Positions 11,719-61,796 of a stretch of DNA of 64,000 nucleotides are shown here, one piece after another (positions within the stretch are counted from its first letter, which is position 1; every line of letters begins with the position of its first letter). The stretch lies in NCBI RefSeq assembly GCF_029784135.1, contig NC_073744.1, forward strand, positions 76,239,935 to 76,303,934. The letters run 5' to 3'. The notes under the pieces were generated by a model. The model had not been told where the DNA came from and made no database searches. It worked only from the letters and a program-made list of their open reading frames with translations. The translations under genes were made by a program, and so were the position numbers. Source of the DNA: Toxorhynchites rutilus septentrionalis. Its lineage: Eukaryota; Arthropoda; Insecta; Diptera; Culicidae.

Positions 11719-12047
11719 TGTGGGATATAAAGCAGGCATGAGAAAATATACATCTATATGCTATGTTTTAATTATCGATTAATTTAATTTGCACTAAAAT
11801 CAACCCAGTTCTGGTGCACTTTACATAACAGTGTCGGAATACGCAAATGAATATGGCATCACTTCAAGAGAATGAGAGGCCAGAGAGAGAATTGAAAGGT
11901 AGATATTGGGATTCTCCAATTAAGATGTTGGATAATGCATTGTATCGAGTTCATTCTGTGTACGATTTCTGGAGCGAGAGGTGTCTCCCGAGCTAAAAGA
12001 AAAATACACCAAGATGGCCTCTAAGTATTGCGAACCTGGTCACGACA
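11719..12047 (+). repeat. Right LTR
   Basis: 329 bp, no visible difference from the left LTR. It is followed directly by the GAGGC target duplicate and the resumed LINE reading frame. Confidence 0.9.
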
Positions 12048-12052
12048 GAGGC

Positions 12053-13818
12053 GTATGCAGAAAAATCTCCGTAGAAACCCGAAACTTTTCTGGTCCTTTG
12101 TCAACTCCAAGAGAATGGAAAAAGGCTTGCCCGTGAACATGTTTCTGGTGAACCACTCGGTTAACACTGCACTCGAGAAATGCAATCTTTTCGCTACTCA
12201 CTTCAAGCGAGCATTCAATTACCGTTCGTCCTCCGAAATGCAAGTTGCTGCCGCCGTTAGAGACACTCAAACCAACGTATTGAATCTTGACATCTTCCGA
12301 GTCACCAGCGATGTTGTGGAGGCTGCGATCCGCAAATTGAAGTATTCTTTGACTCCCGGTCCGGACGGTATCCCTTCTTGTGTACTCAAAAAATGTGCGT
12401 CAAGTCTTGCCTACCCTTTATCGGTTCTATTCGACACCTCTCTACAGCAGAGTATGTTTCCTTCGCTATGGAAGCAGTCAGTGATGTTTCCAGTACACAA
12501 GAAAGGAGACAAACGTAACATAGAAAACTACCGAGGAATCACATCACTTTGCGCCTGTTCAAAAGTTTTCGAAATCATTGTCAATGATGCTGTGTTTTCC
12601 TGTTGCAAGAACTATCTGTCAATGGATCAGCACGGTTTTTTCCCAAAAAGGTCTGTCGCAACCAATTTGGTCGACTTTGTTTCCATTTGTCTGCGCAATA
12701 TGGAGCAAGGTACACAGGTGGACGCAGTGTATACGGACCTCAAGGCTGCTTTCGATCGCGTCGATCACAAAATCCTTCTAGCAAGGCTGAACAAACTCGG
12801 GATTTCATCAAGACTAACGACATGGTTGAACTCGTATCTGAAAGATAGACAGATGTGTGTCAAAATCGGACCTGCACAATCTGCGACATTCTCTAATCCT
12901 TCGGGAGTGCCTCATGGAAGCAACCTAGGTCCATTGTTGTTCTCACTATACATCAACGAAGTATCCTTGATACTTCCAACTGGGTGCCGCTTATTCTATG
13001 CTGATGATGTGAAAATTTATATGGCAATCAGGAACGCACTAGATTGCCATAGGCTTCAGGATCTGGTCAACCGCTTTGAAGAATGGTGCTTGAGGAATAT
13101 GATGTCGCTCAGTATCTCGAAATGCACCACTATTTCGTTTCACCGGAAGCTCAAGCCAATAGTGTTTAACTACTCCATTTCTGGTCAAGTTCTGTCGCGA
13201 GTGAGCCACATCCGTGACCTTGGAGTGACCCTTGATAATGCGCTCAGTTTCCGACTGCACTTCAACGAAATTATTGCTAAAGCCAACCGGCAGTTGGGAT
13301 TCGTTCATAAAATTACAAGTGAATTTCGTGATCCACACTGTCTTCGATCTCTATACTGCTCGCTAGTTCGATCTACACTGGAGTTTAGTGCAGTTGTCTG
13401 GTGCCCGTTTCAAACTAACTGGATTTGTAGGATTGAGTCTATTCAGCGGAAATTTGTGCGACATGCTCTCCGGAATCTTCCGTGGCGGGATCCACTAAAC
13501 TTGCATCCGTACGAGGCTCGTTGCCAACTCTTGGGACTGGAGACGCTGGAAAGGAGACGTTTCAACGCTCAGGCTATGTTTGTCGCCAAACTTTTGACCG
13601 GAGAAATCGACTGCCCTGCACTGTTGGAGCAAATTAATATGTATGCGCCTGAACGTATTCTTCGTACCAGAAACTTTTTGTATCTTGAGGGACGCAGTGT
13701 GAACTATGCGTTGCACAATCCTGTTCGTTTTATGTCAGTCCGTTTCAATGATGTGTTCGACTTATTTGACTTTAATATCTCTTCGGACACCTTTTACAGA
13801 CGACTCACTCGTAGATGA
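12053..13818 (+). pseudogene. Non-LTR retrotransposon ORF2, reverse transcriptase half
   Basis: A 589-codon open frame (the apparent ATG at 12028 lies in the LTR). Motifs in order: LTPGPDGIPSCVLKK, PVHKKGDKRNIENYRGI, DLKAAFDRVDHKILL, GVPHGSNLGPLLFSLYIN and the catalytic FYADDVKIY near codon 330. The rest is the usual C-terminal region, with no RNase H domain. This fits the Jockey/CR1 group. The RT half is intact, but the ORF is disrupted by the LTR insert and the endonuclease is missing, so it is dead. The 3-prime UTR runs to about 13950. Confidence 0.85.
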
Positions 13819-20405: not shown

Positions 20406-22225
20406 TCACAACTTAGATTTTAGACCACCCATTAATTTCTCAAGCTTCATCGCTTTTTGCAAATCGCCCGAAATCTTCAACTTCCCTGTCATAAATGCAC
20501 TAGCCGGCTTCAGTTTTCCGCTGAACATATCGAAGAAGTGTTTGGAGTCCATGGTGAGCGTGGCATCCACACTGACTGGCGATTTACCTTTTCCGACCTT
20601 CCCGGTTCCGTTTTTGAGGTCCGCAAACCACAACCCTGCTTCGTCCCCTTTCACATTGAACTCGTAGATTGCTCCTGTTTTCTTAACAATTTCTTCACTC
20701 AACAATGATTCGATTTTCTGGAACAGGCCCTCAATTTTCCCCACAGCAGCAGTCGATTGCTTGAGCGACGCAGCATGGCTTCCTTCGGCTGCGAATTCGA
20801 CTAACTTTTCTGGACCGACGTCCAGGAAGAAGTCCGGCATAAGCTTGTCAGCATTTTCGGGAACACAAGCGTACTGATTCATGTCGACAATACCTTCCGC
20901 TTTCAAAACCTCATCATCGATAAGAAAATTGCCTGTGCAATTTTTCGGTTCCCTACAGAGCACTGCATACGCAGCATCGCTCATAATCTCTGGCTTGCGC
21001 GAAAACTGATCGCTTTCTTTACCGGTGAGCATTTCCATAGCCGCTGTGTAAATAGCTGTTCTTGGCCACAGGGCATTCACCGCAATGTTATCGTTTTTGA
21101 ACTCACGAGACATGCCCAGGACACACATCGACATACCATACTTAGCCATTGTGTAGGCCACGTGATTGCCAAACCAGACGGGATTCAGATTAAGCGGAGG
21201 AGAAATATTGAGTATATGAGCGTGGTTGCTTTTCTTCAGATATGGAATGCACTCCTTGGAGCTGTAATTGAAATTTGTCTCATTTGCTTAATGAGTTAAG
21301 TACAATAGGTTGCTTGTGAATACCCACACCAGGAAGGTACCGCGCGTGTTGATGTTGTGCATCAAATCATAACGTTTCATGTCGGTTTGTTCGGTTGGAG
21401 TGAGCGATATAGCGCTGGCGTTATTTACAAGAATATCAATACCACCGAATTTATCCACCGCGCTCCTGACTGCCGCTCGGACAGCATTCTCATCGCGGAC
21501 ATCTACCACACACGGCAATGCTTTGCCACCGGCAGCTTCGACTGAAAGAATATCATAATATTGTCTTGTATTTAAAATCATAAAATTCAAAACGCAAAAC
21601 AAAGATACATCACCAAGTTCTGCAAATTGATTAATGGCTCAATTTCGTTGTAAATTTACTAGATTGTTCATCAAACATTAAAATTGAAACTACTTACTTT
21701 CAGCTGCAGCAGTGTATATTGTTCCCGGCAGTTTCGGATGCGGTTCGGCAGTTTTAGCTGCAACAACTATATTTGCCCCATCCTGTGCCGCTTTGAGCGC
21801 AATTGCTTTTCCGATCCCTCTTGAAGCGCCGGTGATGAAAATAGTGCGTCCAGCCAATTTCCTAAAACGATTGCCAAATGGTAGGTATCCATTATAATTC
21901 GAGAATTTCCTTTGTATTTCGTGACATGAATGAAACGAAGAGGCAAACCCCAAAGACAAACAATTATGTTTACTTTTCAAAGCATATTTTGTATATGACG
22001 TGTCACATATTCAAGCTGTTGGATAATAAACCAAAACGAAACGAGAGGATCAGAAGTTTGAAATATATTCAAATCGACGGTGCCTCCCACTGATTATTAA
22101 ACAGAAAGCACTTTTATCTATGATATATTACATGATAACATTTTCAATGTAAAAGAAGGTTCCGAAGGAGTAATAATACATTCCATCCCATGTTCGATAA
22201 GAAATACAAACCCTGTATTAATCAT
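20406..22225 (-). CDS. HSDL2: Hydroxysteroid dehydrogenase-like protein 2 (HSDL2), complete, four exons
   Basis: Exons: 22212-22225, 21698-21861, 21328-21541, 20406-21261. Total 1248 nt, 415 residues, close to the usual ~420. Phases match at every junction, and the introns (350, 156 and 66 bp) obey GT-AG. The N-terminus MINTGKLAGRTIFITGASRG holds the SDR cofactor motif TGxxxGIG near residue 17. NNAS, the NISPP serine block and the catalytic YTMAK follow. The C-terminal ~110 residues form an SCP2 sterol-carrier domain (GLWFADLKNG, FFDMFSGKLKPASAFMTGKL). The last residues SKL are a PTS1 signal. Family knowledge: an NAD(P)-dependent SDR fused to a lipid-binding domain, placed in peroxisomes and/or mitochondria, linked to lipid metabolism; its substrate is unsettled. 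The C-terminal exon alone carries both the active site and SCP2. Confidence 0.93.
22212..22225 (-). CDS. HSDL2: HSDL2 exon 1 (14-nt coding microexon)
   Basis: ATG ATT AAT ACA GG encodes MINT plus two bases of Gly; exon 2 supplies the third G (21861). The peptide MINTG/KLAGR is what the family has at this place. The donor is GTTTGT, weaker than consensus. The alternative ATG at 21980 would give an unrelated leader and ignore a good acceptor at 21862-21863. Confidence 0.8.
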
Positions 22226-22779
22226 GTTGTGTATGCTCTGTAACTTGGTTCAAACTAATGAAACTAACTCGACCACATAAAAAATTGACATCAAATCAAA
22301 TAAATAAACTTAAAAATTGCACGATACACCACATATGATGACTTCTAGCTTTCTTCTGGCGCAGTACCGCACACCTTCCGATCAAAATAATGAAGTTATG
22401 AGAAAGTCTCATCGAAGTACGGTACAAAGTTCAGTATGATTTTGCTTATTTCGCTCACACACACGAGAGTCGCGATAAACCGGCTGTAATACACAGTGGC
22501 ACACATAGGGGTATGATAGCACGTAACTTATATTTGAATTGGTAATCGAAAAAAATTATGTCGTCACTAATACTTATGAGTATGCAGTTTATATGGAAAA
22601 ACAAGGAAATGTTCAAAACACTCACAAGTTCATGCTATTTTGAGCCAAATAATCATGAAATTGCAGAACTGTTCTAAGTTTGATTTTGGATAAAAGCAAA
22701 GTGTGTGATGACTAATTTGCACTGTATAGAGCAGGGATGGCCAAACGATAGTCCACGGTCTGTCGGTCGCCCGCGTAGG
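22226..22779. other. HSDL2 upstream region
   Basis: 5-prime UTR and promoter are expected here. I see no clear TATA or initiator, and no other gene. Confidence 0.4.
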
Positions 22780-23475
22780 TATCACTTGAAAAACACTTCA
22801 TTCGAAATATAAAATGTCCAATATTTATATGATTGTTACTTATTGATAAAAAAAATCGTTTCAATAGCTGAAAAACTGCTTCGAAAACACTATCGAAATC
22901 ACTATAAATATAGCAATCACCTGAAATATCGTTTCAGTCGCGATTGGACTGAATTTGAGGCATGATGTCGAAGCGAACCTCTCTCAGTTTCTATTCTGCT
23001 GTCGCATGGAATGATCATTAAAAATGGTTTGCTTCAGATTACGCCAGAGTAGAAGAATATTCGCACACATTTGCGCATTCGATTAAATGTTCCGTGATGC
23101 AATCTATAAGCACCAGTTTATATTCTGCTTTCGCATGGAATGGTCATGAACAATCTCGTGTATCATTCTCATGAAAACAAAATGAATCATGTATCAAATA
23201 TCTTCAGTTGCTTTTACAAAGCCTCTCAAACCCATCGGTTCTTTTCAGGACCACCAAGAAAAGAAATAGTTGAATTTTATGTTAATAACAATTCCATACT
23301 TATACTCGTCCACCCACACACTAACAAGAAAAACTCAGCAATCCTTCAAAATATTCATTCATTCATTCATTGATAATTGAATCAGGTGCAATCTCAAATA
23401 AATTATTACTGAGCCAGCGGTAGTCCTACGTCTACCTTGCGGTTATATCACAGATATAAACCATTTCTTGTATTT
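22780..23475 (+). mobile_element. GACGTAG-palindrome element, variant B copy 1, with histone 3-prime stem-loop
   Basis: The left end is truncated. The right end has GTAGTCCTACGTC (23420-23432), then GGTTATATC-ACA-GATATAAACC. Inside are TATAAATA at 22903, an initiator TCAGT with A at 22936, and a near-canonical histone mRNA stem-loop GGTTCTTTTCAGGACC at 23237-23252 followed by ACCAAGAAAAGAAA, which looks like a histone downstream element. No intact histone frame is left between promoter and stem-loop. Confidence 0.65.
23237..23252 (+). promoter_or_regulatory. Histone mRNA 3-prime stem-loop (relic)
   Basis: GGTTCTTTTCAGGACC fits the replication-dependent histone consensus GGYYCTTYTCAGRRCC: six stem pairs (one T-G wobble) and a TTTC loop, flanked by ACC and a purine-rich stretch. 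Confidence 0.75.
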
Positions 23476-23479
23476 GAAG

Positions 23480-24060
23480 AAAACTTCGTCTTTGAAGACT
23501 GCTGCGAATACGAGTTTTGATGAAGTATTGTTATTTCTATTTTAAAACTATGATAAATAATGTGAATTAATTGTGCACATTTCTTTCAAGAAATATAGTC
23601 ATTAGTAGAAAAAACAACAGTGATGAATGAAAATTATTATGCAATTCTAGTTGAACAGAATTCTGCTCGTTAACTCTATTTTGCTGTTATCGATACAGTC
23701 GGGTGAAAACCGTCGGCATAATGTTCCAAGTTGTTTGGCTTGCCTGTTGCATTCCTGATGTACCTGATTTACAAAGTACGAAAATTTGCTCGGTATGACA
23801 GTTGTAGGGATCAAATCGACCATTCGATTCAATTTATATAATAGGGACCATTACTTCCGACAAATAGTTCTTATACCTTAATGTTCTTATAATTGAGAAA
23901 TATAATAATCATCTTGGGTGTATTTTTATGGAAAGCTTTGTATATTCATAAATGACAATTTCATTTCAAAAATCAACGATGTTGATTGATGAGACTGTAC
24001 AGAAAATAGAGTATTACTTATTAATTATTTAATAACCGATAATTATTTTTATTTTATAGA
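23480..24060. other. Unassigned AT-rich DNA
   Basis: No gene or repeat recognised between two variant B elements. Confidence 0.35.
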
Positions 24061-24065
24061 ATTAT

Positions 24066-24668
24066 TTCGACGCAGGACTACGTATTTCATTTCTATACTG
24101 TGGTGTAAATTCAAATTTTTGAAAACGAAAGCGTTACGCCTAAGATCCTAACTCCTAATGAAATAGTATAATAAACACTTCATTCGAGATATAAAATGTC
24201 TACGCGTTATATACTTGTTACTTTTTGATTCAAAAACTTGTCTCCATAGTCTTAAAATTGCTTTCAAAACAGGCTATTGAAATCACCAATCGGTATATAA
24301 GCGAACGTCACTCGGAAATCCACTCAGTTATAATTGAACAGCGAGCAGCGGAGCATGTTGTCACTGTTGTGGCGAAGCTAACTTCGTTCATCATGATGAA
24401 TGGTGTCACCAAGTGCCTGTTTGTGCACCTTATGCCAGAAGGGAATCCATCGGGAGGAGAGTGTTGCCACTGAAAAGGCAATCAAGAGAATACCAGCATC
24501 GAAAATTGGTTCCGTTTGATGCTTCGGAGCAGCCGCCACACACACTCATACTTCCCCAAATATTCATTCATTCAGAATGGATTCAGGTTCAACTCCAAAC
24601 AAATGATCACGAAATCAGATAGTCCTACGTCAACCTTGTGCTATACAACAAATATAACCCACTTCCTG
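24066..24668 (+). mobile_element. GACGTAG-palindrome element, variant B copy 2, with H3-like remains
   Basis: Left end CGACGCAGGACTACGTA at 24068-24084; right end ATAGTCCTACGTCAACC at 24619-24635, then a degenerate hairpin and CCCACTTCCTG before a T-run. Inside are TATATAA at 24294 and TCAGT with A at 24326. Near 24430-24475 lies ATGCCAGAAGGGAATCCATC then GGAGAGTGTTGCC, resembling the 3-prime end of histone H3 (ATGCCNAARGAYATCCA ... GGAGARCGTGCC) with the middle deleted. The H3 assignment is tentative. Confidence 0.55.
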
Positions 24669-24770
24669 TTTTTTATCCCATTTGTTTATTTATTTAGGTT
24701 CATTAGCATTTTTAGCTGTAACAGAGCCGGATTTTAATCGTGTACATGTTACATGTTTTGTCGTTATTTT
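24668..24770 (-). repeat. Dispersed repeat, inverted copy of 3028-3130
   Basis: Contains TTTATTTAGGTTCATTAGCA and ACATGTTACATGTTTTGTCG in the reverse order of the copy at 3028. Confidence 0.55.
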
Positions 24771-24841
24771 GTTTTGAGGAGGCTGAATTGAATTGAAATT
24801 GAATTGCCACTGAATGAAGTCGAAGAAATTTTTTTTTTATT

Positions 24842-25140
24842 TTTTGACGTAGGATTACGTATTTCGGGAGCATATTGGGGTACAAATTGAAAATCGAAAA
24901 TCGAGCACATCGTGAAAATTGTCCAATTTTAAACGCTTATTAATCGGTCATTTCATAATGGATTGATGAAACTTTTGCGTTAATCGATTTCGGCACTCTA
25001 TAACATTTTTTTATATTGAAAAAAATTATGTAAGTCATGAAACTAACTATCGAACAATTGAAAAAACTCAACCCCATTCCCTAACAGGTTCCCTAACAGA
25101 GTCATCAAACCCAAGCTACCTGGGGGAAATCGGCGACGTG
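24842..25140 (+). repeat. GACGTAG-palindrome element, variant A, left part
   Basis: TTGACGTAGGATTACGTA at 24844 then TTTCGGGAGCATATTGGGGT. Matches the left 270 bp of the elements at 26563 and 59929, and breaks off after the first tandem unit. Confidence 0.7.
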
Positions 25141-25680
25141 TGGCCCGTGTCAAAACAAAAAATTTTTTTAAGTAGGTACAATGCAATTTTAAGAACCGAC
25201 TCGAACTCGTTCCTAATCGATTCGACCAATTCAGCAGTTGCTGGCACTGTGTAAAGAGACTTTGAGAGTGCCGATAGGGCATCCATACTTCTCTCTTTTC
25301 TTCTCTTCTTGATCTTTTTCATTAAAATCTATATGGTGAAACTAATGCACATAAATTGTGAGCGATCTATTTATTTTCATTTTTAATAAAGGATAATTTA
25401 TTCCGTCAGGATAATATCACAGGCTTAGTATTGTAATATAAAAAATGGTCGACATTGTTTTCTTAGATGCAGACCTTGATCCAGTTTTTGTTCATCATAC
25501 AAAAACCACTTCGTTCCTATCTCTTCAGAACTTCCAAGGTTTTTCAAAATTGGAAGACGAACAACAAATTCTTTTGAAGATGCATGGCTCGTATCTTTGA
25601 AGAAGGGTTACTAGCAGCGAAGCTCTTTATTGCGCTCTATTAAAATGTGGTAATTTGTGGAATACTCTTCTATGGGTTGG
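25141..25680. other. Unassigned non-coding DNA
   Basis: Nothing recognised except short decayed frames. Confidence 0.35.
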
Positions 25681-25689
25681 ACCGGAAAG

Positions 25690-26062
25690 TTCGTGCCGCC
25701 ATTGAAGTCAATCTAATCGAGGAATCCATTAAGAATAATATTCGGTACACGACATATCAATTAACAGATTCACTACAAATATCCAAAAAACCACCATCCT
25801 TGAGCATCTGGTGCAGCTAGGAAATTTCTACGGCGTATGGGTTCCACATTATTCGACCGAAATAAACTCAATTAATCACATCTTTATCTGCGACTCGTTC
25901 TATAAACGTTAAAAAACGCCGTTTTGTAAAAAATCGTAATGGGCGATGAAAAGTCTTATAATTTACAACAATTTTGAATGGAAAATTCTTGGGATAATCG
26001 ACATAAACCGTTATCTAACCCCGAGGTCAGCCCTAACCCGCAAAAGGTCATCTTATGTCAGA
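25690..26062 (+). pseudogene. Mariner transposase relic, middle part
   Basis: Broken plus frames read TTILEHLVQLGNF, VWVPHYSTEINSINHIFICD and, near 25938, a decayed MGDEKW block followed by ...NSWDNRHKPLS and PQKVILC. This order (helix-turn-helix end, VPH linker, first catalytic D) is that of mariner. The match stops at about 26062. Stops throughout. Confidence 0.65.
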
Positions 26063-26169
26063 AACAGCACATCCCTGTCAAACTCCAAAATTTCTTGTCA
26101 GATTGTCGAGGGGACATGAGGTATGACGTTCATGTTATGAGCTTCTTACAAACAATCAGTCGATAAATT

Positions 26170-26560
26170 CCAACCATGTGGTCGAAACTATATAATATAT
26201 ATATAATACATTCACTGTAGCATTTGTGAACATTCGACAAGCGTAAGCTTTAAGAAAGTGTGATTAGGTGTTGAATTAATTTGCGACTTTTCTCAACTTG
26301 GGATGCTGGTAAAACGTGAGCTTCGCACAAACGAGAGTAGAGCAATTAACTGCAGACCATTTCGTAAATTCATAACGAAATGACTGAACGATTTCGAGAT
26401 GCTGAATGTATATGCATTATCAGGAACAGTTATAACATTATTTTTTCATGCACAGAAGTTAACTGTAGACAACATAAATGGAAATCGGAAGAAGCTGAAG
26501 TGTGATACAAATAACGTACCGGGTAACATTGAAGAAAGAAAAGAATAGTGAATAGATCGA
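26170..26560. other. Unassigned AT-rich DNA
   Basis: No gene seen. The segment near 26504-26525 (GATACAAATAACGTACCGGG) recalls the window start (1-20), so it may be part of a dispersed repeat. Confidence 0.35.
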
Positions 26561-26562
26561 TA

Positions 26563-27345
26563 TTGACGTAGGATTACGTCTTTCGGGAATACATTGGGGT
26601 ACAAATTGAAAATCGAAAATCGAGTACATCGTGAAAATTGTCTAATTTCAAACGCTTATTGCTCAGTAATTCCATGATGGATTGATGAAATTTTTGAGTC
26701 AATCGATTCCGGCACTCCATAATATTTTTTCATATTGAAGAAAATAATATATGTCATGAAACTAACTATCGAGCAATTGAAAAATCTCAACCCCTATTCT
26801 AACAGAAATACCCACTTCTGATTGGTCGAAATTGACGACACATACGGCGGGTCACTAAGAGAGACATCAAAACCAAGCTCCCCGGGGAAATCGGCATAGC
26901 AAATACATAAAAGTAGGGGGAGCTTTCGTTCGTTCCTATCGGAATGTGTTCCTAGACAGATACATCAAAACCAAGCTGCTTTGGAGAAATCGACATTGCA
27001 AATACATGTAAGTAGGGGGAACCTTTTGTTCCTACCGAAGTGTGTTCCCTAACAGAGGCATCAAAACCAAGCTTCCTGGGGGAAATCGGCATTGCAAATA
27101 CATGAAAGTAGGGAGGACTTTTATTCCCACCGAAATGTGTTCCCTAACAGAGACATCAAAACCAAGCTGCCTAGGGGAAATCGGCATTTCAAAAAAGAGA
27201 AGGGAGATCTTTTATTCCTACCGAAATGTGTTCTCTGTAATGTAATTCTTCAAACATATCCAAAATCAAGAGCAAGCCTAACGGAATCCTACGTTAACTA
27301 TGCGGTCGTGTCTCGGACACAACCCTCCTGTGACTTTTATGGCAT
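26563..27345 (+). mobile_element. GACGTAG-palindrome element, full-length variant A/C with 96-bp tandem units
   Basis: Left end TTGACGTAGGATTACGTC (26563-26580). From 26852 to 27235 four tandem units of about 96 bp (CATCAAAACCAAGCTGCC starts near 26865, 26963, 27059 and 27154). Right end: GGAATCCTACGTTAACTATGC, hairpin GGTCGTGTC-TCG-GACACAACC (about 27305), then CTCCTGTGAC and TTTT. The same two ends bound the element at 59929-61462. Confidence 0.75.
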
Positions 27346-27660
27346 TGTTCACAAATTGCATAACGCCAGAAAATATGGATTTTGGACCTCCCTCCTCCTT
27401 AACGTATCGCAAGCTATACCCCTGAAACATAACAAGTAGAACAAACTCGCCCCTTGATTATTCCACGATGATGTTGTTCGAATCTAGAATCTCGTCTTGT
27501 TCGAAGATATTCAAAATCAACATACAACAAATATCGTAACGTAATCCTACGTCAACTATGTGGTCATGGTTAGGATACAACCCTACAACTTTCTTGGTTT
27601 TCCAAAAAAAAAGACGGGTGGGTAATGTCGGGGACATAAACGGAGTGACGTAGGACTATA
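27346..27660 (+). repeat. Further variant C end and palindrome fragment
   Basis: A second right end, GTAATCCTACGTCAACTATG plus a degenerate hairpin, lies at 27540-27590. A left-type TGACGTAGGACTATAC lies at 27649. Confidence 0.5.
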
Positions 27661-27787
27661 CAAAGGGGACAGCTTTTGTTAAAAATATATTTTAAATATA
27701 TTGTATTATTTTCTTCTCCTACGTGAATACCTACCTATCTACCTGAAAAATGGATTAGTTTACTGTTTACTCTTTATGAATATGTTG

Positions 27788-28355
27788 ATGGTTCTGAAAA
27801 CAACCTTTGGTGTTGTGTTTTTGTTATCACTCGATATTCCCATCTTGTTCGGTTAAACCTTCCTGTTTAGCGATTGCATTTGCCACTCGCCACAGCTTTC
27901 ACAGTTGGAAAATTTCTTCCCATCCAGCTTGTGATATGTTGTTCAGTAAATTACTTTTAATGCGACGTGCCGGAGAAACACTTTGCCACTCACTGAAACT
28001 AATTGTTGCCTTGATGAGCGCCGAACCGAAGCTGCTCTGTTCTTGATGCGGGTTTCTGATTGTCGTGAGCAGCTTTGCAAGCCAACTCGAGCACTCCGAC
28101 GGCCGAAGCTCTATAATCGCTGTTAGGTATACTGGTGCTCTGGGACCAATCCGTTCGGCCTACTTACCCTTGCGGAGCAATCAGTGAATGCGACCAACAG
28201 GGAACTGGAGACCTGCACGGTTCGAGTGAGACTTTGCCTTTCCCTTAACTTGTCCTCCTTTGTTACGTCCACGATGCCGATGCCGTACAACCACCCGGGT
28301 TTACGGTTTGAAAGAAAATAAGATATTTTTTTGGGGTCCGCGTGTTTTATACTCA
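27788..28355 (-). pseudogene. Histone H2A pseudogene unit, copy 1
   Basis: On the minus strand from 28270 the frame reads [29 protein letters not shown], stop, LLRKG, stop, AERIG, PRAPVYLTAIIE and then frameshifts. This is the H2A N-terminal tail and histone fold start. The ATG is lost. TATAAAA (plus TTTATAC, 28347-28353) lies about 75 bp upstream of the lost start. A histone-type stem-loop with one mismatch, GGTTGTTTTCAGAACC, is at 27790-27805. At least two stops and a frameshift: non-functional. Confidence 0.85.
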
Positions 28356-28513
28356 AGCGGTACACACTCACAGGATAGAGACAAATCGGCAGACTCAGCC
28401 AGAGGGGCGAATCCAACGAGACGAACGAATGAGCGTTAAAAGGGAGCGATGGCAAAAAAATACATTCATTACGATTTGTTCGCTCGTTGGATTCACATGC
28501 AGGCTAAAAAGGG

Positions 28514-28529
28514 TACTTTTCAGGATCAC
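28514..28529 (+). promoter_or_regulatory. Possible histone stem-loop on the plus strand
   Basis: GGTACTTTTCAGGATC resembles a decayed histone 3-prime stem-loop, opposite in direction to the H2A pseudogene. A divergent H2B partner, now almost deleted, is one explanation. Weak. Confidence 0.3.
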
Positions 28530-28552
28530 AAAATTATTTTCAATCTAAAGAG

Positions 28553-28700
28553 TTTATTGTTTTGTTATCACTCGATATCCCCATCTTGTTCGGCTAAACC
28601 TTTCTGTTTAGCGATTGCATTTGCCACTCGCCACAGCTTTCACAGTTGGAAAATTTCTTCCCATCCAGCTTGTGACATATTTTACAGTAAATTACATTCA
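28553..28700 (-). repeat. Duplicate of the 3-prime part of H2A copy 1
   Basis: Nearly the same as 27822-27972 (TTTGTTATCACTCGATATYC ... CCAGCTTGTGAYAT), covering the region after the H2A coding part. Confidence 0.7.
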
Positions 28701-29099
28701 ATGGCACGTCGCATTACCACCACTCAGTATCGGATTGGAGGTAATTTTAACCTGTAATTGAACATTTGCGACGACAGTGGTACAGTGTCGATTTTCAATG
28801 TGGGGTCATAATTTGGACCCCGAACTCTATGTTTACAAAAATGTCCAACTAAATATGTCGCATTACAGGTCCGTCCAATTAGCTAAATGTCGAGATAAGT
28901 GTGAATTACTGTACTTTCAATCTAGAAGCAATTTAAGAATTGGTAAAAATCAATAAGCTCAGAACAACTGCCAAATTCACATACTCATCATATCCTGGCA
29001 AACAAATTATGAAAAAATCAATTTGTGTTTTATTATTAATTTGGGTATTGTTTTAGAAAGCATTGAACTGTATTTCCTAAACTCTTTTTTGGGAGGTTT
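28700..29099. other. Unassigned DNA between histone relics
   Basis: No feature recognised. Confidence 0.35.
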
Positions 29100-29102
29100 A
29101 AT

Positions 29103-29645
29103 GGCCCTGAAAAGCGCCTTGTTTTATGGAATGGTTCCAATTTAGAAAACTTAGTACTCGTGGTTTTGAAAAAAACCATTTCGAACGCCCTTGATGCCAC
29201 CTTGTTCTGGATTTGCCATCAAAGCAGTTTGTATAAAGAACAAATTTTTTTCTTCTGCTACCTGAAGCCGTTTTGCGATTGCGTTTGCCACTCGCCACTC
29301 GCTGCAACTGCCTGTTGTCTTGATGTCCACCGAACCGAATGTGTTCTGTTCCGAATGCGGGTTTTCTTATCGTCGCGAGCAGCTTTGCCAGCTAACTCGA
29401 TCACTTCGGCGGCCGAAACTATATAACGCCGGCTAGGTGGACTGCTGCACTGGTACTAACGTGCTCGGCCTAGCTACCCTTGCGGGGAACTCCAGATCAA
29501 CACGGTTCGAGCGGGATTTTGCCTTTCCCTTCATTTTCCTCCTTTACCATTTCCAGACATGGCTGCTTGGGTTGGTTTGTTGATGTGTTCTGATGCGAAA
29601 CGATGTGGTGTACGGTTTGAATGAGAATGATCGTTACGGCAGCGG
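29103..29645 (-). pseudogene. Histone H2A pseudogene unit, copy 2, with stem-loop
   Basis: ATG at 29560-29558 starts MSGNGKGGK; a one-base loss then shifts the frame, after which VKGKAKSRSNR follows. A deletion removes the VGRIHRLL region; RKG and AEVIELAGKAARDDKKTRI can still be read in shifted frames. The stem-loop GGCGCTTTTCAGGGCC (one mispair) is at 29103-29118 on the minus strand. A TATA-like CTTAAAAATCCCCGC lies about 95 bp upstream of the ATG. Its upstream DNA leads without a break into a variant A end at 30078. Confidence 0.88.
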
Positions 29646-29799
29646 AGCGGGGATTTTTAAGCTGACTGGCTGGCTCGAGAATTACGCATGTGTGAGACTG
29701 CGACCAATGTTTCGTTCATTTTTTTCTTTTTCCTTTCCAATCGTGCTTCATTCTATTTCGCTGCTGCTCTGGTTGCCCGTTTTGGTCGGTACGATTTGA

Positions 29800-30078
29800 G
29801 GAGCACAAAATGGACCAATCAAAAATGGGCACATAGTGCATTTGGACAATGCTTGATATTTCACAATTATTCAATTATTTATCTCAAGAAAAATGAAATT
29901 TTATTCGTTATGATAGATGCGTAGATATATTTCCTATCAATTGATGCAAAAACCTTTGCGATCTATTGAGAAATGCTCGAGTTATAAGCGTTCCAAATCT
30001 TGCTTTTTTTCCTACTTGTTCAGTGCCTAGATTTCCATATCACCCCCTATATCTTCCGGTTAGACGTAGTCCTACGTC
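29800..30078 (+). repeat. GACGTAG-palindrome element, variant A right end joined to H2A promoter side
   Basis: From GGACCAATCAAAAATGGGCA through GATAGATGCGTAGATATATT and a CGAGTTATAAGCGTTC-type block to GACGTAGTCCTACGTC at 30063-30078. The same series ends the elements at 52636, 62863 and (part) 48830-49065. The CCAAT sequence may have served the histone promoter. Confidence 0.7.
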
Positions 30079-30089
30079 AAAAAAACAAA

Positions 30090-30465
30090 TAAGAAGAAAA
30101 ATTCGAAAAAAAGATAGGAATGTCCACGTGGACAAAAAAGGGAAGGGGTATAATGACTTTATTTTTGCTACGCACGAAAGACAACATAAACAAACTGCAG
30201 CACGCCAAGCGACTGCCATAGTAATCATGTGGACAAACCAACATCAGCGCATCGGACAAACCATGATCAGAATTGAGTTCATCGAGATGCATTAATTTAT
30301 GGTGATTTATGGTGGGTGCAAATGGTGAGCAAGCATAGGGCCGTTCAAATACCACGTGGACAACTTTAGGGGGGTAGGGGTTACCAAAATGTCCACGCTT
30401 GTCCACGGTGAGAGGGAAGGGGGTTTTGATAATGTCCACGTGGACACGTAAAATATTTTTTAAAG
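30090..30465 (+). repeat. CCACGTGG repeat, copy 1
   Basis: GTCCACGTGGAC occurs at about 30122-30133 and near 30435, with G-rich runs (AGGGGGGTAGGGG) and GTCCACGCTTGTCCACGG between. A fragment at 30160-30290 recurs inverted at 47450-47540. Confidence 0.6.
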
Positions 30466-31154
30466 TAAAACATTCAAGTTAATATTCAAAATTGGATGAG
30501 GGCACTTCTAAAACTCCACCCGCCTTGCACACCAGATATTGCATATTCAGATTTTAAACTGTTTAAAGATTAAAGATTCTTGTAAGAACTTCTACTTACT
30601 GCTTAGCATAAATTCTAAGAGGATGGAATTCTCAAGTTGCATGAAGGATGCTGAAATATTCAGGAAAAAACGGTGCATCTATGATCGAAAAGATGTATAT
30701 CTATAAAAATATGCTTCTGGTTTTTTCCATAGAATCGGCACGAATTTTCCAGGACAATATTTAGTATGATTTAACAATTAAGGGTTGTAGGTCAACGGAA
30801 TCATCGATCACGATGATACTGCAGATGTTTTGTTTTTACTAGGTTCATTATAGCCATCCGGCACTACCGAACCTGTAAAAGCGAAAGTCATGGATGTTTA
30901 GACGAGAAAATTCTGTTTTCAAACAAAAGGCTTGATTTAATTTTCTGATTTTTTGAAAAGTCAAACAGCTTTAATAAAAATACTCGAGAATAAGTTCACA
31001 ATCGATATTTTAAAATGGATATGGAGATAACGTAAATAGAATTTGGATGAAAATAATTTCAAGACAAATCGGCAAATAAAAATATGGACAAGAAAATAGA
31101 AACAAACTTGAAATGAAATTTAAGCGAAAAAAATGGGATTTCTTGATTTTTTCC
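30466..31154. other. Unassigned AT-rich DNA
   Basis: No feature recognised. Confidence 0.35.
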
Positions 31155-31689: not shown

Positions 31690-31761
31690 GACTCCGTGGC
31701 GCAACGGTAGCGCGTCTGACTCCAGATCAGAAGGTTGCGTGTTCAAATCACGTCGGGGTCA
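31690..31761 (+). tRNA. tRNA-Trp (CCA)
   Basis: 72 nt, folds as a full cloverleaf. The acceptor GACTCCG pairs with CGGGGTC; anticodon loop CTCCAGA with CCA at 31722-31724; T-loop TTCAAAT. Discriminator A. A T9 terminator follows within 20 bp. Same sequence as 45050-45121. Confidence 0.95.
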
Positions 31762-35671: not shown

Positions 35672-35744
35672 TGCCCCGAGTGAGGATCGAACTCACGACC
35701 TTAAGATTATGAGACTTACGCGCTACCGACTGCGCTATCGAGGC
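35672..35744 (-). tRNA. tRNA-Met elongator (CAT)
   Basis: 73 nt on the minus strand. Acceptor GCCTCGA pairs with TCGGGGC; anticodon loop CTCATAA; variable loop AGGTC; T-loop TTCGATC; discriminator A. A T-run follows on the minus strand. Same sequence as 50857-50929. Confidence 0.95.
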
Positions 35745-38620
35745 TTATAGTTTTATGTTTTTCAAAGACATATCTAAGTGATTGCTTCTTAACACTGATA
35801 TTTAGAAGTAAATTTGCCACCGGGTTTTCTTCGTGCTAATGTTTAAAAAAATAATCATTTTTTGGATTGTTTTAGTGGTAAAGGGTCATAAATAAATAAA
35901 TAAATCTAGTGGTCTCGAAGACCACACTAATGCAATATAACATAATCATGTGATCGAAAAAATAAATAATACATATCTTATAAAAATATTTTTCTCATGA
36001 CATCTATCTGTCAATATTGAAAACTGCATCATCAATGTGGGGGTAGATTTCGATGCTACTATTCAACGATTAGTACTGTCGTTAGGGTTGCCAAAACCAC
36101 GGAATAATCTGGTTTCCCTAGATTTATCAGATTTTTTGAAACCAAGAATCTGTAGCTAGAGAATTTTTTTTTTAAATTTTCACATGTATTTTATGATTTT
36201 TTTTAATATAACGTTTCATTGTTAGCTATGAATCGATGTTAACATTTTTCGTACCGCGTATGTTTTCATCAAATTGTTTGAATGAGTGTCATTTTATTGA
36301 CATAGTCTTCGTCTTATTATGAGTCTTCTAAAAGCCTTATTCGAATCGGTTATCGTCGAAATAAATAAAGCTGTTTGTTCTTTTTTCTTACAAAAGTACT
36401 GTGAATATACTTTGTACGTTCTGATTCCGAGCTGCAGAATTGACAAACTTACGTTAGAATTGCAACCAGATAGCGCAGCGAGTAAAATGATGATGGTTTT
36501 TTTTTGTATGAAATTGGTTTGATTTGTTTTGAAAAGTCAGAAATTTTCTGCAAATTTTTCGGATTCAAGTGCTCTTTCTACGCTGAAAAAGGTTAGAAAA
36601 TCATCATTTTACATTGTTCCATTCATAACATATGACGAATGCTTCGGTACAAGTGTTCTAATTTACATTTTTTCACTAGGCAAATGATGAGTGGCATTTT
36701 TTGCGCTTCAAATATTGCAGATCCATCTCGTATCGGCCATCTCGGAATCCCCTGCATAATCAATGATATCAACCTTGATATGATATCGATTGCATCGTCA
36801 TTATTCACAGTTTGAGCTTCTGAAAAATGTCCGGGAATTAGTACTCATAATTCTCTATCACACAAACATTTCGAAGATTATCTATGGCTTTGGTCCAATC
36901 GAGTATGGAGAACATTGTAAATAAACAAAACTATAATTTTCATACCATTTACTGAGGACGATTAATGACTAATAGAAATTAATAAAATGATTAATAGAAA
37001 TCAATAAAAATAATTACGAACGAATCGCACTTTCAAGTGTGCAGAATAAACAAACATCATCACTTTTGTAATTCTGAGCTCTTATGTAGGTGTGGCATGA
37101 GCTGATTCAGCTTTGCGTAAATTCGTCAATATCGATCAACGTAATTTGTCTTATTTTGAATTAAGGCAGTATTCTAGTCTATAATAGAAGAAAACAAAAA
37201 AAATCTTTTCAAGAAAAACTTGAACTGTACACTTAATTTTTCCACGTCTGAATTTGAGATTTTTGGTTTATTTTTTAAACATGACATATAAATGTGATAA
37301 TTTTTTTTTATCGTTACATGAGAGTAAAAAGAATCGATTTCACGATGAATATAAGTCGCTTTTATTTATTTACATTTTAACTCTGAAAAAAATAAAAAAT
37401 AACTAACTAACACGGGGTGTATACTCAATTTTGCGATTGACTGTATGTACGTAGAATATATACAAAAAAAAATTAACATAAAAGCCTCAGAGAGGAGAGT
37501 CAATTTTTTTTTGTTCTCAAGGTGCCGTACACTGTTTGTCCGGAGGTCAAATATTTGACACTTTTTGACAGTTTGGTTTGAAATTTGTACAAACACTATT
37601 TTGTTTGCCACTTTTCAACTATCAAGAGTGGCAAACAATGTCAAACATCGAACATAGAATAAGTCAACTGAAATATTTAAGGTAACCTAACCATGTACCG
37701 ACAGGTTCAAAGAAGAAACCGAAAAAATATTTTAGGCATCCAATAATTGAATATTTGCTTGTCGTGTTTTGTGTCAAATATATTTGATCAGTTCACGTTG
37801 ATCAAATTTTATCTATCAAAAAGAGTCATATTTGGCTTCGGTCAAACAGTGTATGAGCAAATTTATTCTTCATATGGTTATAATGAAAATTCAAACCAGA
37901 TAATTTCAATCAAGTTAGCAGCCTCGCTTGTCATTCGATTTGTTGTCATTCATTTTCGGGAAAAGTGTTCAAACTTGACGTGAAGTTTGTTTGCGGGATC
38001 ATTTTTGCTTCTTAATCCGCGATTTGGTTTTTCGTGTTTTGATCGGACAGGTTCGATTAGTGTTTGTCATTTGTGATCGGGTGCAATTTCATTTGATTTG
38101 GTACAGCCAAGACGAGGTATCAGGTGAGGCGATATAGCAGGAGTAAAAAATAAATCACCCCAGTTCCCAGTTGATTTATTGCTGCAATCTCAGTGGACCG
38201 ATTTTTCCAATGTGAGTAATCATTGAATACATTGGAAAATGTTGAAGAACGAATGCAGTGTCTGAATGTTTAATAGACCACGATTCATATGACAATAAGA
38301 ATTATCCTACCAGTCTCTCGACGTCTATGCCGTTATATTTCTGCCCATCGCTGATGGACCATTCATATGCAAATTTCAAATTTGACATGCAGGTCGCTCA
38401 TCAATGCAGTAGTATCGATGAAGGGCCAATCGAATTGACCGATCGTGAAGGTGAATCAATCTGTCTCGTCCACAAAACTCAAAGAGTCAAGAAACGATCA
38501 ATCAGTAACAAGTATTAACCTTTCCTTTACCGACCCTCTAGACGGTGTTTAAAAATTATGAACATTTTTAAAACGCCGACTAGGGCAATAATAAAAAAAA
38601 TCAATATTAAAAAACAGGAA
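35745..38620. other. 2.9 kb AT-rich DNA without recognised gene
   Basis: Several short frames (36319-36522, 37366-37611, 38258-38518) have neither family motifs nor splice context. No repeat end recognised. Confidence 0.4.
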
Positions 38621-39400
38621 GTGGGTTATATCTATGGTATAACCGCAAGGGTGACGTAGGACTATCGTTGATTTAGAGATCATTTGTATGAAGTTGAATC
38701 TGAATTCATTCTGAATGAATGAATATTTGGAGAACTTCGAAAACGAGAGCGTTACGTTGGAGGCACAAGGTTTTATGCATCCAATATTGGATACGGAAAT
38801 ATCCTACTGATGGGGAAGAATAATCTTCAGAAGCTATCCTGTTGATTGCGATTGATTGAAAAATCACAAAACCTAATGTATTTGGTCACAGTGTTACATG
38901 GATAGAAAACATTAAAATAAACTCTTTCATATGAATGTAATTTTAAATTCCCAGAGGAACTGGCAGATTATTTTCAGTAACGATTAGATATTTCCACATT
39001 TTCCTCGATACTGGAAAATGGCTCTTGGTGACACCGTTCATCCGCGCTTTCATGATAAATGAAGAGCTTCACCACAACAGCGACAACATGCTCCAATCGC
39101 TGTTAAATTAGAACTGAGTGGATTTCCGAGCGGCGCTCGCTTATATACCTATTGGTGATTTCAATAGCCTATTTTGAAAGCAAATTTAAGACTATTGAAA
39201 CAAGTTTTTGGATCAGAAAGTAACAAGTATAGAACGCGTAGGCATTTTATCTTTCGAATGAAGTGTTTATCATACCATTTCGTTCAGTTGTTTAGGAGCT
39301 ATTAACACTCAAAATCTCGGTCTCCGGCGTAACGCTTTCGTTTTCGAAATTTTGATTTTACACCCCGGTATAGAAATGAAAGACGTAGTCCTACGTCAAA
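38616..39400 (-). mobile_element. GACGTAG-palindrome element, variant B copy 3, both ends present
   Basis: Starts after an A-run with CAGGAAGT, hairpin GGTTATATC-TAT-GGTATAACC (38624-38644), GCAAGGG, TGACGTAGGACTA. Ends with GACGTAGTCCTACGTCAA at 39382-39399. On the minus strand it has TATATAA (first T 39147) and TCAGT (A at 39115), as in copy 2. A central block unlike the other copies (about 38790-38990) may be inserted DNA. Confidence 0.7.
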
Positions 39401-39884
39401 AATCAATGTTCTGCATAACGTACTTAAGAATTTTTCATCAGATAAGCGTTGAAGTGGAACGGACTTGCAATTAAGTGGAAGAGAAGGAAGCGTTGTCATG
39501 GAAAGCCAAGTTTCGTGCTTTGCAAATGCAAATGCAAATGCATAAAGGGGAACCTAGTGACAAGAGAGCTTTAATTTGATTGTTAGAAACATTCAAGTTT
39601 ATTATGTACTTATTGGATAAAATTAAGAATAACATTTTAAAAACTTCTAACTTTTTGGTTTTTCACATCTAAAGTGGTACTTAAATCCTCTAATTTGGTA
39701 GTATTAAATGTATTAAATTATTATTATATTTCAAAGTACTCGAGTCCGCCGTGTATTGTAAATTGATAACCTTTTTCTAGTCGCTAAGTAGTTTACCCTC
39801 CTTTAATGAGTGTCCGCAAGTGCATATGTGAAACCCGGAGGAGTCGTTGCTGACAAGCTAAGGTACCCACTATAGATCCATCCG
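39401..39884. other. Unassigned DNA
   Basis: No gene seen. Contains CGAGTCCGCCGTGTATTG, similar to short motifs near 3140 and 35090. Confidence 0.35.
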
Positions 39885-40375: not shown

Positions 40376-40602
40376 TGGTCATGCTACCAACCAGGGGTCC
40401 TCAGCACGTCCCGGAACAACAACAAACACGTCTGTTCCATTTTCGCGGTCGAAGCAACAGCCACTACCTGGCCTGCTTGCGCTTTCAGACCTTGTGGATA
40501 ACATTTTAAATGCTTTAAATATAAATGATCCTCTTAAAAGCATAGTATTATGTTTGCTTCCGGTTGTGAGAACATTTTTGAAAGAAAAATGTGGCTTTTA
40601 GC
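40376..40602 (+). pseudogene. I-type LINE ORF1, C-terminal end
   Basis: A Ser/Thr-rich frame ends with PLPGLLALSDLVDNILNALN and VVRTFLKEKCGF, stop at 40599-40601. It runs directly into ORF2, the ORF1-ORF2 order of an I-type LINE. The zinc-knuckle part is absent, so the 5-prime end is truncated. Confidence 0.5.
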
Positions 40603-40620
40603 CAGCGTTCATTTCCCTCG

Positions 40621-41251
40621 ATGCCTAATTCAGCGCAAGAGGTCAAGGATTTGACCACTGTCATACAGTGGAATTGCAGAAGCATCATCCCTAAACTAGA
40701 CCAATTTAAATTTTTAGTTCACAGTTCTAACTGTGATGTATTTTCTCTCTGTGAAACATGGCTTTGTTCAGCCGACGAGCTGAATTTCCACGATTTCAAC
40801 ATTATTCGCCTAGATCGTAACGACTCTTTTGGTGGCGTACTATTGGGGATCAAAAAACGTCACTCCTTCTATAGAGTCACTATCCCATCGATTACAGGCA
40901 TTGAAGTTGTCGCTTGCCAGATACAAATCAATGGTAAAGAACTCTGCATTGCTTCGATATATATTCCTCCCAGGACTACGGTAGGCCGCCATCAGTTCTT
41001 TGATATTATCGAGGCATTGCCGGAGCCGCGGTTAATCTTAGGTGACTTCAACTCCCATGGAACAGCATGGGGGTCACTCTACGATGACAACCGTGCCACG
41101 TTGATTTATGATCTGTGCGACAACTTCAACATGACAGTTTTAAATACTGGGGAAGCAACTAGGATAGCCAATCCTCCTGCACGGGCAAGCATGCTAGACA
41201 TATCTCTCTGCTCTTCTTCATTATCCCTAGATTGCACATGGAAGGTCCGTC
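40621..41251 (+). pseudogene. I-type LINE ORF2, AP endonuclease domain
   Basis: From ATG 40621: VIQWNCRSI, FSLCETWL, SIYIPPR, LILGDFNSHGTAWG and MLDISLCSS are the ordered motifs of the LINE apurinic endonuclease. The frame is then joined to RT C-terminal sequence by a deletion near 41250. Confidence 0.85.
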
Positions 41252-59574: not shown

Positions 59575-59645
59575 GCATCGGTGGTTCAGTGGTAGAATGC
59601 TCGCCTGCCACGCGGGCGGCCCGGGTTCGATTCCCGGCCGATGCA
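59575..59645 (+). tRNA. tRNA-Gly (GCC)
   Basis: 71 nt. Acceptor GCATCGG pairs with CCGATGC; A box TGGTTCAGTGG; anticodon GCC at 59607-59609; B box GGTTCGATTCC. Discriminator A; T7 run follows directly. Confidence 0.96.
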
Positions 59646-59928
59646 ATTGATTTTTTTCTTTAATTTTTTTATGATTTTATCTATTAACCAGGATTAGGCG
59701 ATCTTGGATCGATTTTCAGAGGATCGATCTTTTCCATTTCGATTTCTGATTTTTTGGATCGATTCTTTGTATCCGAAAAAGTCGAAAAGATCGATCTTTT
59801 TCTTGCGATCTTAGAGTTTTTTTTCAATGTACATCGATTTCAATCTCACCACCTGACAAATTTTATGAACATAATCTTTCATAATCTTTCATCGATCTTT
59901 TTCTTGCGATCTTTTCGATCTTAGAGTT

Positions 59929-61462
59929 TTGACGTAGGATTACGTCTTTCGGGAACATATTGGGGTACAAATTGAAAATCGAGCGCACCGTGAAAATTGT
60001 CCAATTTCAAATGCTTATTGCTCAGTCATTTAATGATGGATTAATGAGATTTTTGCGTCAATCAATTTCGGCACTCCATAACAATTTTTTACATTAAATA
60101 AAATAGTATATGTCATGAAACTAACTATCGAACAATTGAAAAATCTCAACCCTTATCTTAACGGAAATACCTACTTCTGATTGGTCGAAATCTACGACAC
60201 ATGCGGCGAGTCCCTAACAGAGACATCAAAACCAAGCTGCCTGGGGGAAATCGGAATTGCAAACGCATGAAAGTAGGGGGAGCTTTTGATCCCATCGAAA
60301 TGTGTTCCCTTACAGAGACATTAAAACCAAGCTGCCTGGGGGAAATCGATATTGCAGATACATGAAAGTAGGGGGAACTTTTTTCCCACTGACATGTATT
60401 CCCTAACAGAGATTTCAAGTCCAAGGTGTCTGAGGGTAATCAGCATGTAAATACCCTCGTGGCCGATAGTTTAACTAACGACGCGCACAAATGGATAGTG
60501 CTCATTGTAACTAGTGTGGGCATCGCTGATTGCATACGTGCTGGCGAATAAGTTGGGAGCGATGAACGAGTGTTTTTTTTTGTTATTTTCGTTCCAATAA
60601 GAATATTTCGATGGGTTGATTGATGAATGATGTTTCAATGAACTGAATAGAACTTATGCTTGATAGAATTAAATAAAATTTGAATTTGTAATTTTTATGT
60701 TGGTTGCTTCGCGAAATTTCATATCAATGACCGATCATGTATTGTAAAATTTTTAGCACAACTGTAAGAGTAAAATTGTATATGGTAACTATTGTGTTAA
60801 AATGACTTGAAATATGAAACGATTTTTTTTTCTCCCAAGGAAAGTTCATGCGACGAGCAAAATTGGAAAAATGAAGGAATATTCGAAAAAGTGATTTCAC
60901 ATATGCTCTACATATCGTATTGGGTGCTGTTAGCCTAATTGAAATTTGCATTGAGGCAAGTAGCATCGTGTTCCGTTGGGTTTAAAGCGAAAAGGAAATG
61001 GGTTGTATAAACACTCAGAAAATTAAAAAAAAAATAAATGAAATTACCTTTTCCATTTCAAATATATTTTCTCTATACTAAAGTAACTCTTCATTTCTGG
61101 TGAGAAAACTTGTGTTCGATAATGATAATTATCTTATATTACATTGATGAGCTTTTTTTTTCTTAATTCCATCTATACATAACATAGGAGCCATCTCGTC
61201 CAGGACCACAGAGGGCGGCTTTAGTACGTGATACGCACCATCTAATGACTAATCACCATCTTTTTAGCATTATCACTCGGTTATGGACACTGGTGGAGTG
61301 AACAAACAATACCTAACAACCAGATAAAACGGACCCAAATCATTATCGAAGAGTTTAACAATGTAATTCTTCAAACATATCAAAAATCAGCATGCAGCAG
61401 ATAGCCTAACGGAATCCTACGTCAACTATGCGGTCGTGTCTTGGACACAACCCTCCTGTGAC
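59929..61462 (+). mobile_element. GACGTAG-palindrome element with both ends defined by an unfilled site
   Basis: Left end TTGACGTAGGATTACGTC; three ~95-bp units from 60205; right end GAATCCTACGTCAACTATGC, hairpin GGTCGTGTC-TTG-GACACAACC (61432-61452), CCTCCTGTGAC. The host F sequence TTAGAG-T8-CAATGT is uninterrupted at 59811-59830; at the insertion it is split within its T-run (59930 / 61463). About 900 bp of unrelated DNA (60440-61340) lies inside. Confidence 0.75.
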
Positions 61463-61796
61463 TTTTTTTTTCAATGTACATCGATTTCAATCTCACCACC
61501 TGACAAATTTTATGAACATAATATCAACATTTGGATAGCTTTCGAGGATTTCAAATTTGTGATAGTGAATAGGATTGAGCTATCTAAGATCGATATTTAG
61601 AAGATCGGTCTTTTTCTTTCCAATTTACGATTTTTCGGATTGATTCTTCCTACTCCAAATTAAATTGCGAAAATCGATCTTTTCTTTGCTATTTTTCCAA
61701 TCTTTTTGACCGTAGAAAATTTTTTGGAAATTTGTTTTTTTGTGAACATTGATTCTCACCAAAATCCACAAATTTCATAAACTTCATAAATTCGTT

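What the first reader, a model, noticed from the sequence alone, without database searches (positions are those of the whole stretch)
22780..30078. Palindrome-ended elements carrying decayed histone genes
Seen: elements with GACGTAG ends contain a histone 3-prime stem-loop (23237-23252), H3-like 3-prime sequence (24430-24475), TATA-Inr promoters, and two H2A pseudogenes (27788-28355, 29103-29645). The upstream DNA of the second H2A copy runs without a break into a variant A right end (29800-30078). Inference: a mobile family has captured replication-dependent histone genes with promoter and 3-prime signal, or derives from a histone cluster. Gene capture is known for Helitrons; capture of histone units with these ends is not something I know as described.
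Basis: partly seen in the sequence, partly recalled or inferred. Interest (0 to 1): 0.88.

Follow-up and report, generated by a model that had tools for sequence, protein, structure and literature searches.

The report
Mosquito rolling-circle transposon carrying histone pseudogenes
A 2.5 kb mobile element in a mosquito genome seems to have picked up a histone H2A gene, promoter region and end signal included, which has since duplicated and decayed; the same kind of capture was described in Culex mosquitoes in 2014.

Summary
The window, probably from a culicine mosquito, holds a family of short elements built like Helentrons and their non-autonomous derivatives (HINEs): a palindromic left end behind a T run, GACGTAGGAYTACGTC; a right end CCTACGTC plus about 40 nt, usually with a hairpin, running into T's; in some a 95-96 nt tandem repeat core. 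I list 11 left and 9 right ends. One element, 27604-30085 on the minus strand, has both ends and encloses both H2A pseudogenes (E 3.9e-22 and 2.9e-4) and their histone 3' stem-loops. Where relatives pass from the left module to a repeat core, it passes to the histone unit. An orphan histone stem-loop (23232-23277) lies in a neighbour that has only a right end. The 'H3-like' stretch at 24430-24475 is not above chance. Thomas et al. 2014 (PMC4067079) already reported H4 and H1/H5 fragments in a Culex Helentron of the same anatomy, so H2A here is a new example of a known thing. The host genome search did not complete, so amplification after capture is untested.

The parts
27604..30085 (-). Element H: non-autonomous Helentron (HINE)-like element enclosing two H2A pseudogenes; T runs at both edges
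   Evidence: Left end at 30078(-) and right end at 27647(-) in proper order and orientation
29808..30085 (-). Left (5') module: T run, palindromic subTIR GACGTAGGACTACGTC, about 264 nt of module
   Evidence: 77% over 267 nt to the left module at 62863(-), 86% over 106 nt to 52636(-); 80% over 192 nt to 48837-49028, which lies at another distance from its end 49296(-)
27604..27661 (-). Right (3') end: CCTACGTC subTIR, imperfect weak hairpin, T run of 9
   Evidence: the only block shared with another right end is 15 nt (E 0.010, with 38653), so it is identified by its layout
29267..29645 (-). H2A pseudogene copy B with 5' UTR; ATG and N-terminus MSGNGKGGK readable
29079..29182 (-). Two histone 3' stem-loop-like matches downstream of copy B
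   Evidence: Rfam RF00032, 24.5 bits (29137-29182) and 22.8 bits (29079-29123), both below the gathering score
28045..28355 (-). H2A pseudogene copy A (residues 3-78) with TATAAAA-type upstream sequence
   Evidence: TATA box read by eye
27766..27810 (-). Histone 3' stem-loop of copy A
   Evidence: Rfam RF00032 29.8 bits, below the gathering score, E 0.00017 in the whole window
28560..28709 (-). Second copy (93%) of the 3' part of the copy A unit, 27819-27968
22787..23475 (+). E1: right end at 23432, histone stem-loop at 23232-23277, no left end found, no histone coding sequence above chance
24069..24675 (+). E2: small element of the family with both ends; TATA/Inr-like motifs; no histone similarity above chance apart from one H2B score judged accidental
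38608..39401 (-). E3: relative of E2 (80% over 387 nt) with both ends
26563..27338 (+). Relative with both ends and a 96-nt tandem repeat core (26855-27233); a second right end of the same kind follows at 27553
59927..61466 (+). Relative with both ends and a 95-nt tandem repeat core (60211-60441)

Best explanation
The elements are non-autonomous Helentrons (HINEs, relatives of DINE-1) in a culicine mosquito. They would be copied by a rolling-circle Rep/helicase encoded elsewhere, which starts at the palindromic left end and stops at the right subTIR plus hairpin (inferred from the family; no Rep was found here). One lineage acquired a replication-dependent H2A unit (promoter region, 5' UTR, at least the N-terminal 78 codons, 3' stem-loop) in its variable core. 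Both H2A copies share non-H2A sequence after codon 78, so a captured unit, already truncated or rearranged, was probably duplicated inside the element, and both copies then decayed (inferred).
For: Left ends: 11 listed; pairwise identity 0.26-0.37 in the 35 nt upstream of the T run and 0.73-1.0 over the T run and palindrome. Right ends: 9 listed; two (61423, 63966) are identical over 81 nt and part company in the T run. Five adjacent, properly oriented left-right pairs within 2.5 kb against 1.4-1.6 expected, P about 0.004; chance that a block like the H2A pair is enclosed by such a pair 0.0013. Element H's left module follows that of 62863(-) for 264 nt and then enters the H2A unit, while 24846, 26565, 52636, 59931 and 62863 pass into the 95-nt repeat at nt 172-288. 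H2A. Stem-loops. Anatomy and precedent: PMC4067079, sections 3, 8 and 12.
Against: Only one element with H2A is seen, so movement after capture is not shown. The right end at 27647 shares only a 15-nt block with another right end and its hairpin is weak (-2.7 kcal/mol). Of the five relatives with a repeat core only 62863 and 52636 share H's own left module in register; 24846, 26565 and 59931 have a different module beyond the first 35 nt or so. Ten of the 20 ends are not in an adjacent proper pair. No Rep/helicase partner and no empty site were found. Parent H2A loci could not be compared. The pairing test used ends that I had picked and oriented by eye.
Confidence: 0.75

Rival explanations
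1. Remains of an old histone locus into which several HINEs inserted; the element ends lie beside the H2A pseudogenes by chance.
For: Only one locus is visible; two tandem H2A copies and an orphan stem-loop in E1 lie within 7 kb; both H2A copies keep upstream and 3' signals, as genomic duplicates would.
Against: Ends flank the pair in proper order and orientation with T runs (chance about 0.001). In four pieces of element H outside the H2A coding parts, five histones were tried (20 tests): the nearest to a signal were H3 in the tail of copy B (34; 1 of 60 shuffles as high) and H2B in the right flank (28; 10 of 60). Across 22001-31000 and 38501-39500 the H2B, H3 and H4 scores stay within the range of 10 shuffles each.
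Confidence: 0.17
2. The family is a cut-and-paste MITE with GACGTAG terminal inverted repeats rather than a rolling-circle element.
For: Short inverted repeats near both ends and small size.
Against: The ends are asymmetric: the right end has about 40 further nt after the inverted repeat, with the hairpin predicted in 6 of 9; T runs at both edges; tandem repeat cores. These are the features described for HINEs.
Confidence: 0.06

Closest known systems
Helentron-Cq-32A / HINE-Cq-32A of Culex quinquefasciatus (Thomas et al. 2014, PMC4067079; sections 3, 8 and 12 read)
   Same: Palindromic subTIRs, 3' stem-loop, T-run ends, tandem repeats in some copies, decayed histone gene fragments carried inside
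   Different: There H4 and H1/H5 fragments in eight copies; here an H2A unit with 3' stem-loops, in two copies in the one element seen. Their subTIR letters are in a supplement that I could not read, so family identity is untested
DINE-1 / INE-1 of Drosophila (same paper, section 3)
   Same: Left subTIR with an inverted repeat, central repeats, right subTIR followed by a stem-loop, TT preference
   Different: No sequence comparison made; no histone cargo mentioned for DINE-1 in the sections I read
Helitron2 (as described in the same paper, section 3)
   Same: Asymmetric terminal inverted repeats and palindromes at both ends
   Different: Defined by a Rep/helicase without endonuclease; no coding partner here to decide between Helitron2 and Helentron

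Membership tests
Helentron/HINE | Palindromic subTIR, or subTIR plus inverted repeat, at the 5' end | tested here: met
   11 left ends, GACGTAGGAYTACGTC and variants
Helentron/HINE | 3' subTIR complementary to the 5' subTIR, followed by a stem-loop near the 3' end | tested here: met
   9 right ends; folding 45 nt after the subTIR gives the expected hairpin in 6 of 9 (27295, 61423, 63966, 34410, 38653, and weakly 27647) and another fold in 3 (23432, 24631, 27553)
Helentron/HINE | String of T's (2 to 5 in Culex) at the boundaries | tested here: met
   Uninterrupted run of 2-7 T's directly before the palindrome in 9 of 11 left ends (not 24069, 52636); run of 4-9 T's at the 3' edge in 7 of 9 right ends (not 23432, 27553); counted by eye
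Helentron/HINE | Insertion within TT (empty sites) | not tested
   I looked for no empty site; the host genome search did not complete
Helentron/HINE | Autonomous partner encoding Rep/helicase/endonuclease | tested here: inconclusive
   10 of the 35 listed ORFs were scanned with Pfam and none is a Rep/helicase; the partner may lie elsewhere in the genome, which could not be searched
Helentron/HINE | Tandem repeats in the core of some copies | tested here: met
   26855-27233 (period 96, 4.0 copies) and 60211-60441 (period 95, 2.4 copies); element H itself has none
Canonical Helitron | 5' TC and 3' CTRR ends (insertion between A and T not tested) | tested here: not met
   The shared ends are T-run plus GACGTAG on the left and a T run on the right; definition from PMC4067079 section 3
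Replication-dependent histone gene, functional | Intact H2A coding sequence with 3' stem-loop | tested here: not met
   Both present but broken: 2 stops and 2 frameshifts in A, 2 stops and 5 frameshifts in B

The most novel reading that the evidence does not exclude
Mosquito Helentrons repeatedly take up replication-dependent histone genes (H4 and H1 in Culex; here H2A and a separate orphan histone 3' end in E1), because histone clusters are highly active and partly single-stranded in S phase, when rolling-circle copying would occur; captured S-phase promoters might even help elements to be expressed.
Probability: 0.15. Interest if true: 0.6.

Novelty: new member of a known kind. Interest (0 to 1): 0.33.

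Why it matters
It adds a case, with a different histone and with the 3' processing signal still visible, to the only published report of histone capture by Helentrons that my searches showed. A second case in mosquitoes makes it reasonable to ask whether histone clusters are a preferred source.

Tried and rejected
Host genome search for TTGACGTAGG: the request did not complete in any of twelve tries. Viral contigs: one contig with the 18-nt left end (L001), no similarity to the window by blastn, taken as chance; a right-end pattern gave 0. H2A, H2B, H3, H4 and H1 fragments: scans of 7 pieces with 5 proteins each, 35 tests against 60 shuffles. The highest against its null was H2B in E2 (42; 0 of 60 as high, shuffle maximum 40); with 35 tests, no support in the sister element E3 (30; 30 of 60) and shuffle maxima up to 47 over the whole region, I count it as chance. 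H3 in the tail of copy B (34; 1 of 60) likewise. Pfam on the H2A copies gave a weak Histone match (E 0.025, behind RIX1 at 0.014, both below cut-off) for one of six frames; an earlier Pfam call used a frame without the H2A start and gave nothing. A PDB search with part of copy B's tail, one frame, gave nothing. Papers searched for the end sequence: only unrelated papers with the 10-mer (listing). Other paper searches, seen as listings with abstract beginnings only; one search found no paper. Retroposition of a histone mRNA I rejected without a test of its own: the copies keep upstream promoter-like DNA, which a retrocopy would lack.

Full report
What was claimed and what is there. The palindrome is real: 29 matches with up to 3 mismatches in the window against 1.28 expected, largest of 100 shuffles 5. 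The H2A parts are real. A translation with X at stops matches PDB H2A chains (6dzt_C best; Drosophila by recall) at E 3.9e-22 for 27779-28360(-) and 2.9e-4 for one frame of 29090-29698(-). A frameshift-tolerant scan of 22001-31000 gives 249 and 152, against a largest score of 46 in 10 dinucleotide shuffles. Copy A covers residues 3-78 with 2 stops and 2 frameshifts. Copy B covers 1-106 with 2 stops and 5 frameshifts; its alignment is poor after residue 78.

Histone 3' signals. Rfam Histone3 has four matches with E up to 0.5 in the 64 kb, all in this region: 27766-27810(-), 23232-23277(+), 29137-29182(-) and 29079-29123(-), with E 0.00017, 0.0018, 0.016 and 0.075. All four are below the gathering score of 34 bits. 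A stem-loop pattern (my consensus, recalled) with up to 2 mismatches has 5 matches against 0.12 expected. Four are these, and a fifth with 2 mismatches at 28512(+) has no Rfam match.

Element anatomy. Lining up 11 left ends on GACGTAG shows pairwise identity of 0.26-0.37 up to six bases before the palindrome and 0.73-1.0 from the T run through the palindrome. Nine right ends share CCTACGT(C/T), then about 40 nt with the expected hairpin in 6 of 9, then T's in 7 of 9. Two right ends, 61423 and 63966, are identical over 81 nt and differ within and beyond the T run. Two relatives carry 95-96 nt tandem repeats in the core. These are features that Thomas et al. 2014 give for Helentrons/HINEs: palindromic subTIRs, 3' stem-loop, strings of T's at the boundaries, tandem repeats in some copies (sections 3 and 8).

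The H2A element. The end at 30078 is a left end of a minus-strand element, and a right end of the same orientation lies at 27604-27661. Both H2A copies and their stem-loops lie between them. Of the 20 ends, five adjacent pairs within 2.5 kb are in proper order against 1.4-1.6 expected (P about 0.004); ten ends are unpaired. The chance that a block as long as the H2A pair is so enclosed is 0.0013. I chose and oriented the ends by eye before the test, so these numbers are a guide. Element H's left module follows that of 62863(-) for 264 nt (77%), then changes to histone upstream DNA. Five other left modules (24846, 26565, 52636, 59931, 62863) change at nt 172-288 to the 95-nt repeat; of these, 62863 and 52636 have H's own module in register, the other three a different one. 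The insert thus sits where relatives have their variable core.

Duplication inside the element. After codon 78 the two copies share a stretch that does not read as H2A (alignment), and part of copy B's tail gave no PDB match in the one frame tried. The simplest history, an inference, is one captured unit, already truncated or rearranged, then tandem duplication. Copies A and B are 72% identical over 278 nt. A 150-nt piece of copy A's 3' part is present again at 28560-28709 at 93%, so by its similarity a later event.

What fails. The H3-like stretch scores 34, where shuffles of that element average 29.0 (sd 3.8) and 9 of 60 reach it. E1 has no recognisable left end. No histone coding sequence stands out in E1 (lowest 6 of 60 shuffles as high, H4), and E2 and E3, which share its flanks, have no Histone3 match. 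E2 has an H2B score of 42 that none of 60 shuffles reached; I take it as chance among 35 tests. The TATA and Inr motifs of E1-E3 were read by eye and not tested.

Host. The HSDL2-like ORF at 20406-21287(-) is closest, among named proteins of the 120 listed, to Malaya, Topomyia, Sabethes and Wyeomyia (87-89%), then Anopheles (79-86%, one partial hit 69%); unnamed entries reach 90%. Entries are clusters at 90%, so other mosquitoes may be hidden in them. A culicine mosquito is inferred; the species is unknown.

Known or new. Section 12 of Thomas et al. [quoted passage not shown] My other paper searches (listings with abstract beginnings only; no paper) showed no H2A case; the library holds openly licensed papers only. 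The present element is therefore a new member of a known kind. Whether it belongs to the Culex family by sequence is untested, because the subTIR table is in a supplement I could not read.

Limits. The host genome search did not complete, so copy number, mobility after capture, empty sites, parent genes and an autonomous partner remain untested. Mechanism (rolling-circle copying with uptake of host DNA) is taken from the family, not shown here.

Noticed in passing
window 12025-13818 (+) and 40582-42918 (+): Non-LTR retrotransposon-like remains: reverse transcriptase (PF00078) in the first; endonuclease (PF14529) and a weak RNase H match (PF00075, below cut-off) in the second.
   Followed up: no
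window 47779-48309 (+): Transposase fragment (PF01359, E 4.5e-27), mariner type by recall.
   Followed up: no
window 10625-11133 and 46620-47122: Two arrays of a 143-nt tandem repeat (3.6 and 3.5 copies), 84% alike over 673 nt, about 36 kb apart.
   Followed up: no
window 35672-35744 (-), 50857-50929 (-), 31690-31761 (+), 45050-45121 (+), 59575-59645 (+): Five tRNA matches to Rfam; two pairs with equal scores (67.9 and 67.6 bits), the members of each pair about 13-15 kb apart.
   Followed up: no
window 30119-30446: Another palindrome, AATGTCCACGTGGACA, occurs twice exactly and once at 81% just outside the left end of element H.
   Followed up: no
window 20406-21638 (-): HSDL2-like gene: SCP2 and short-chain dehydrogenase domains in 20406-21287; the ORF 21288-21638 looks like a further part by eye.
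   Followed up: partly
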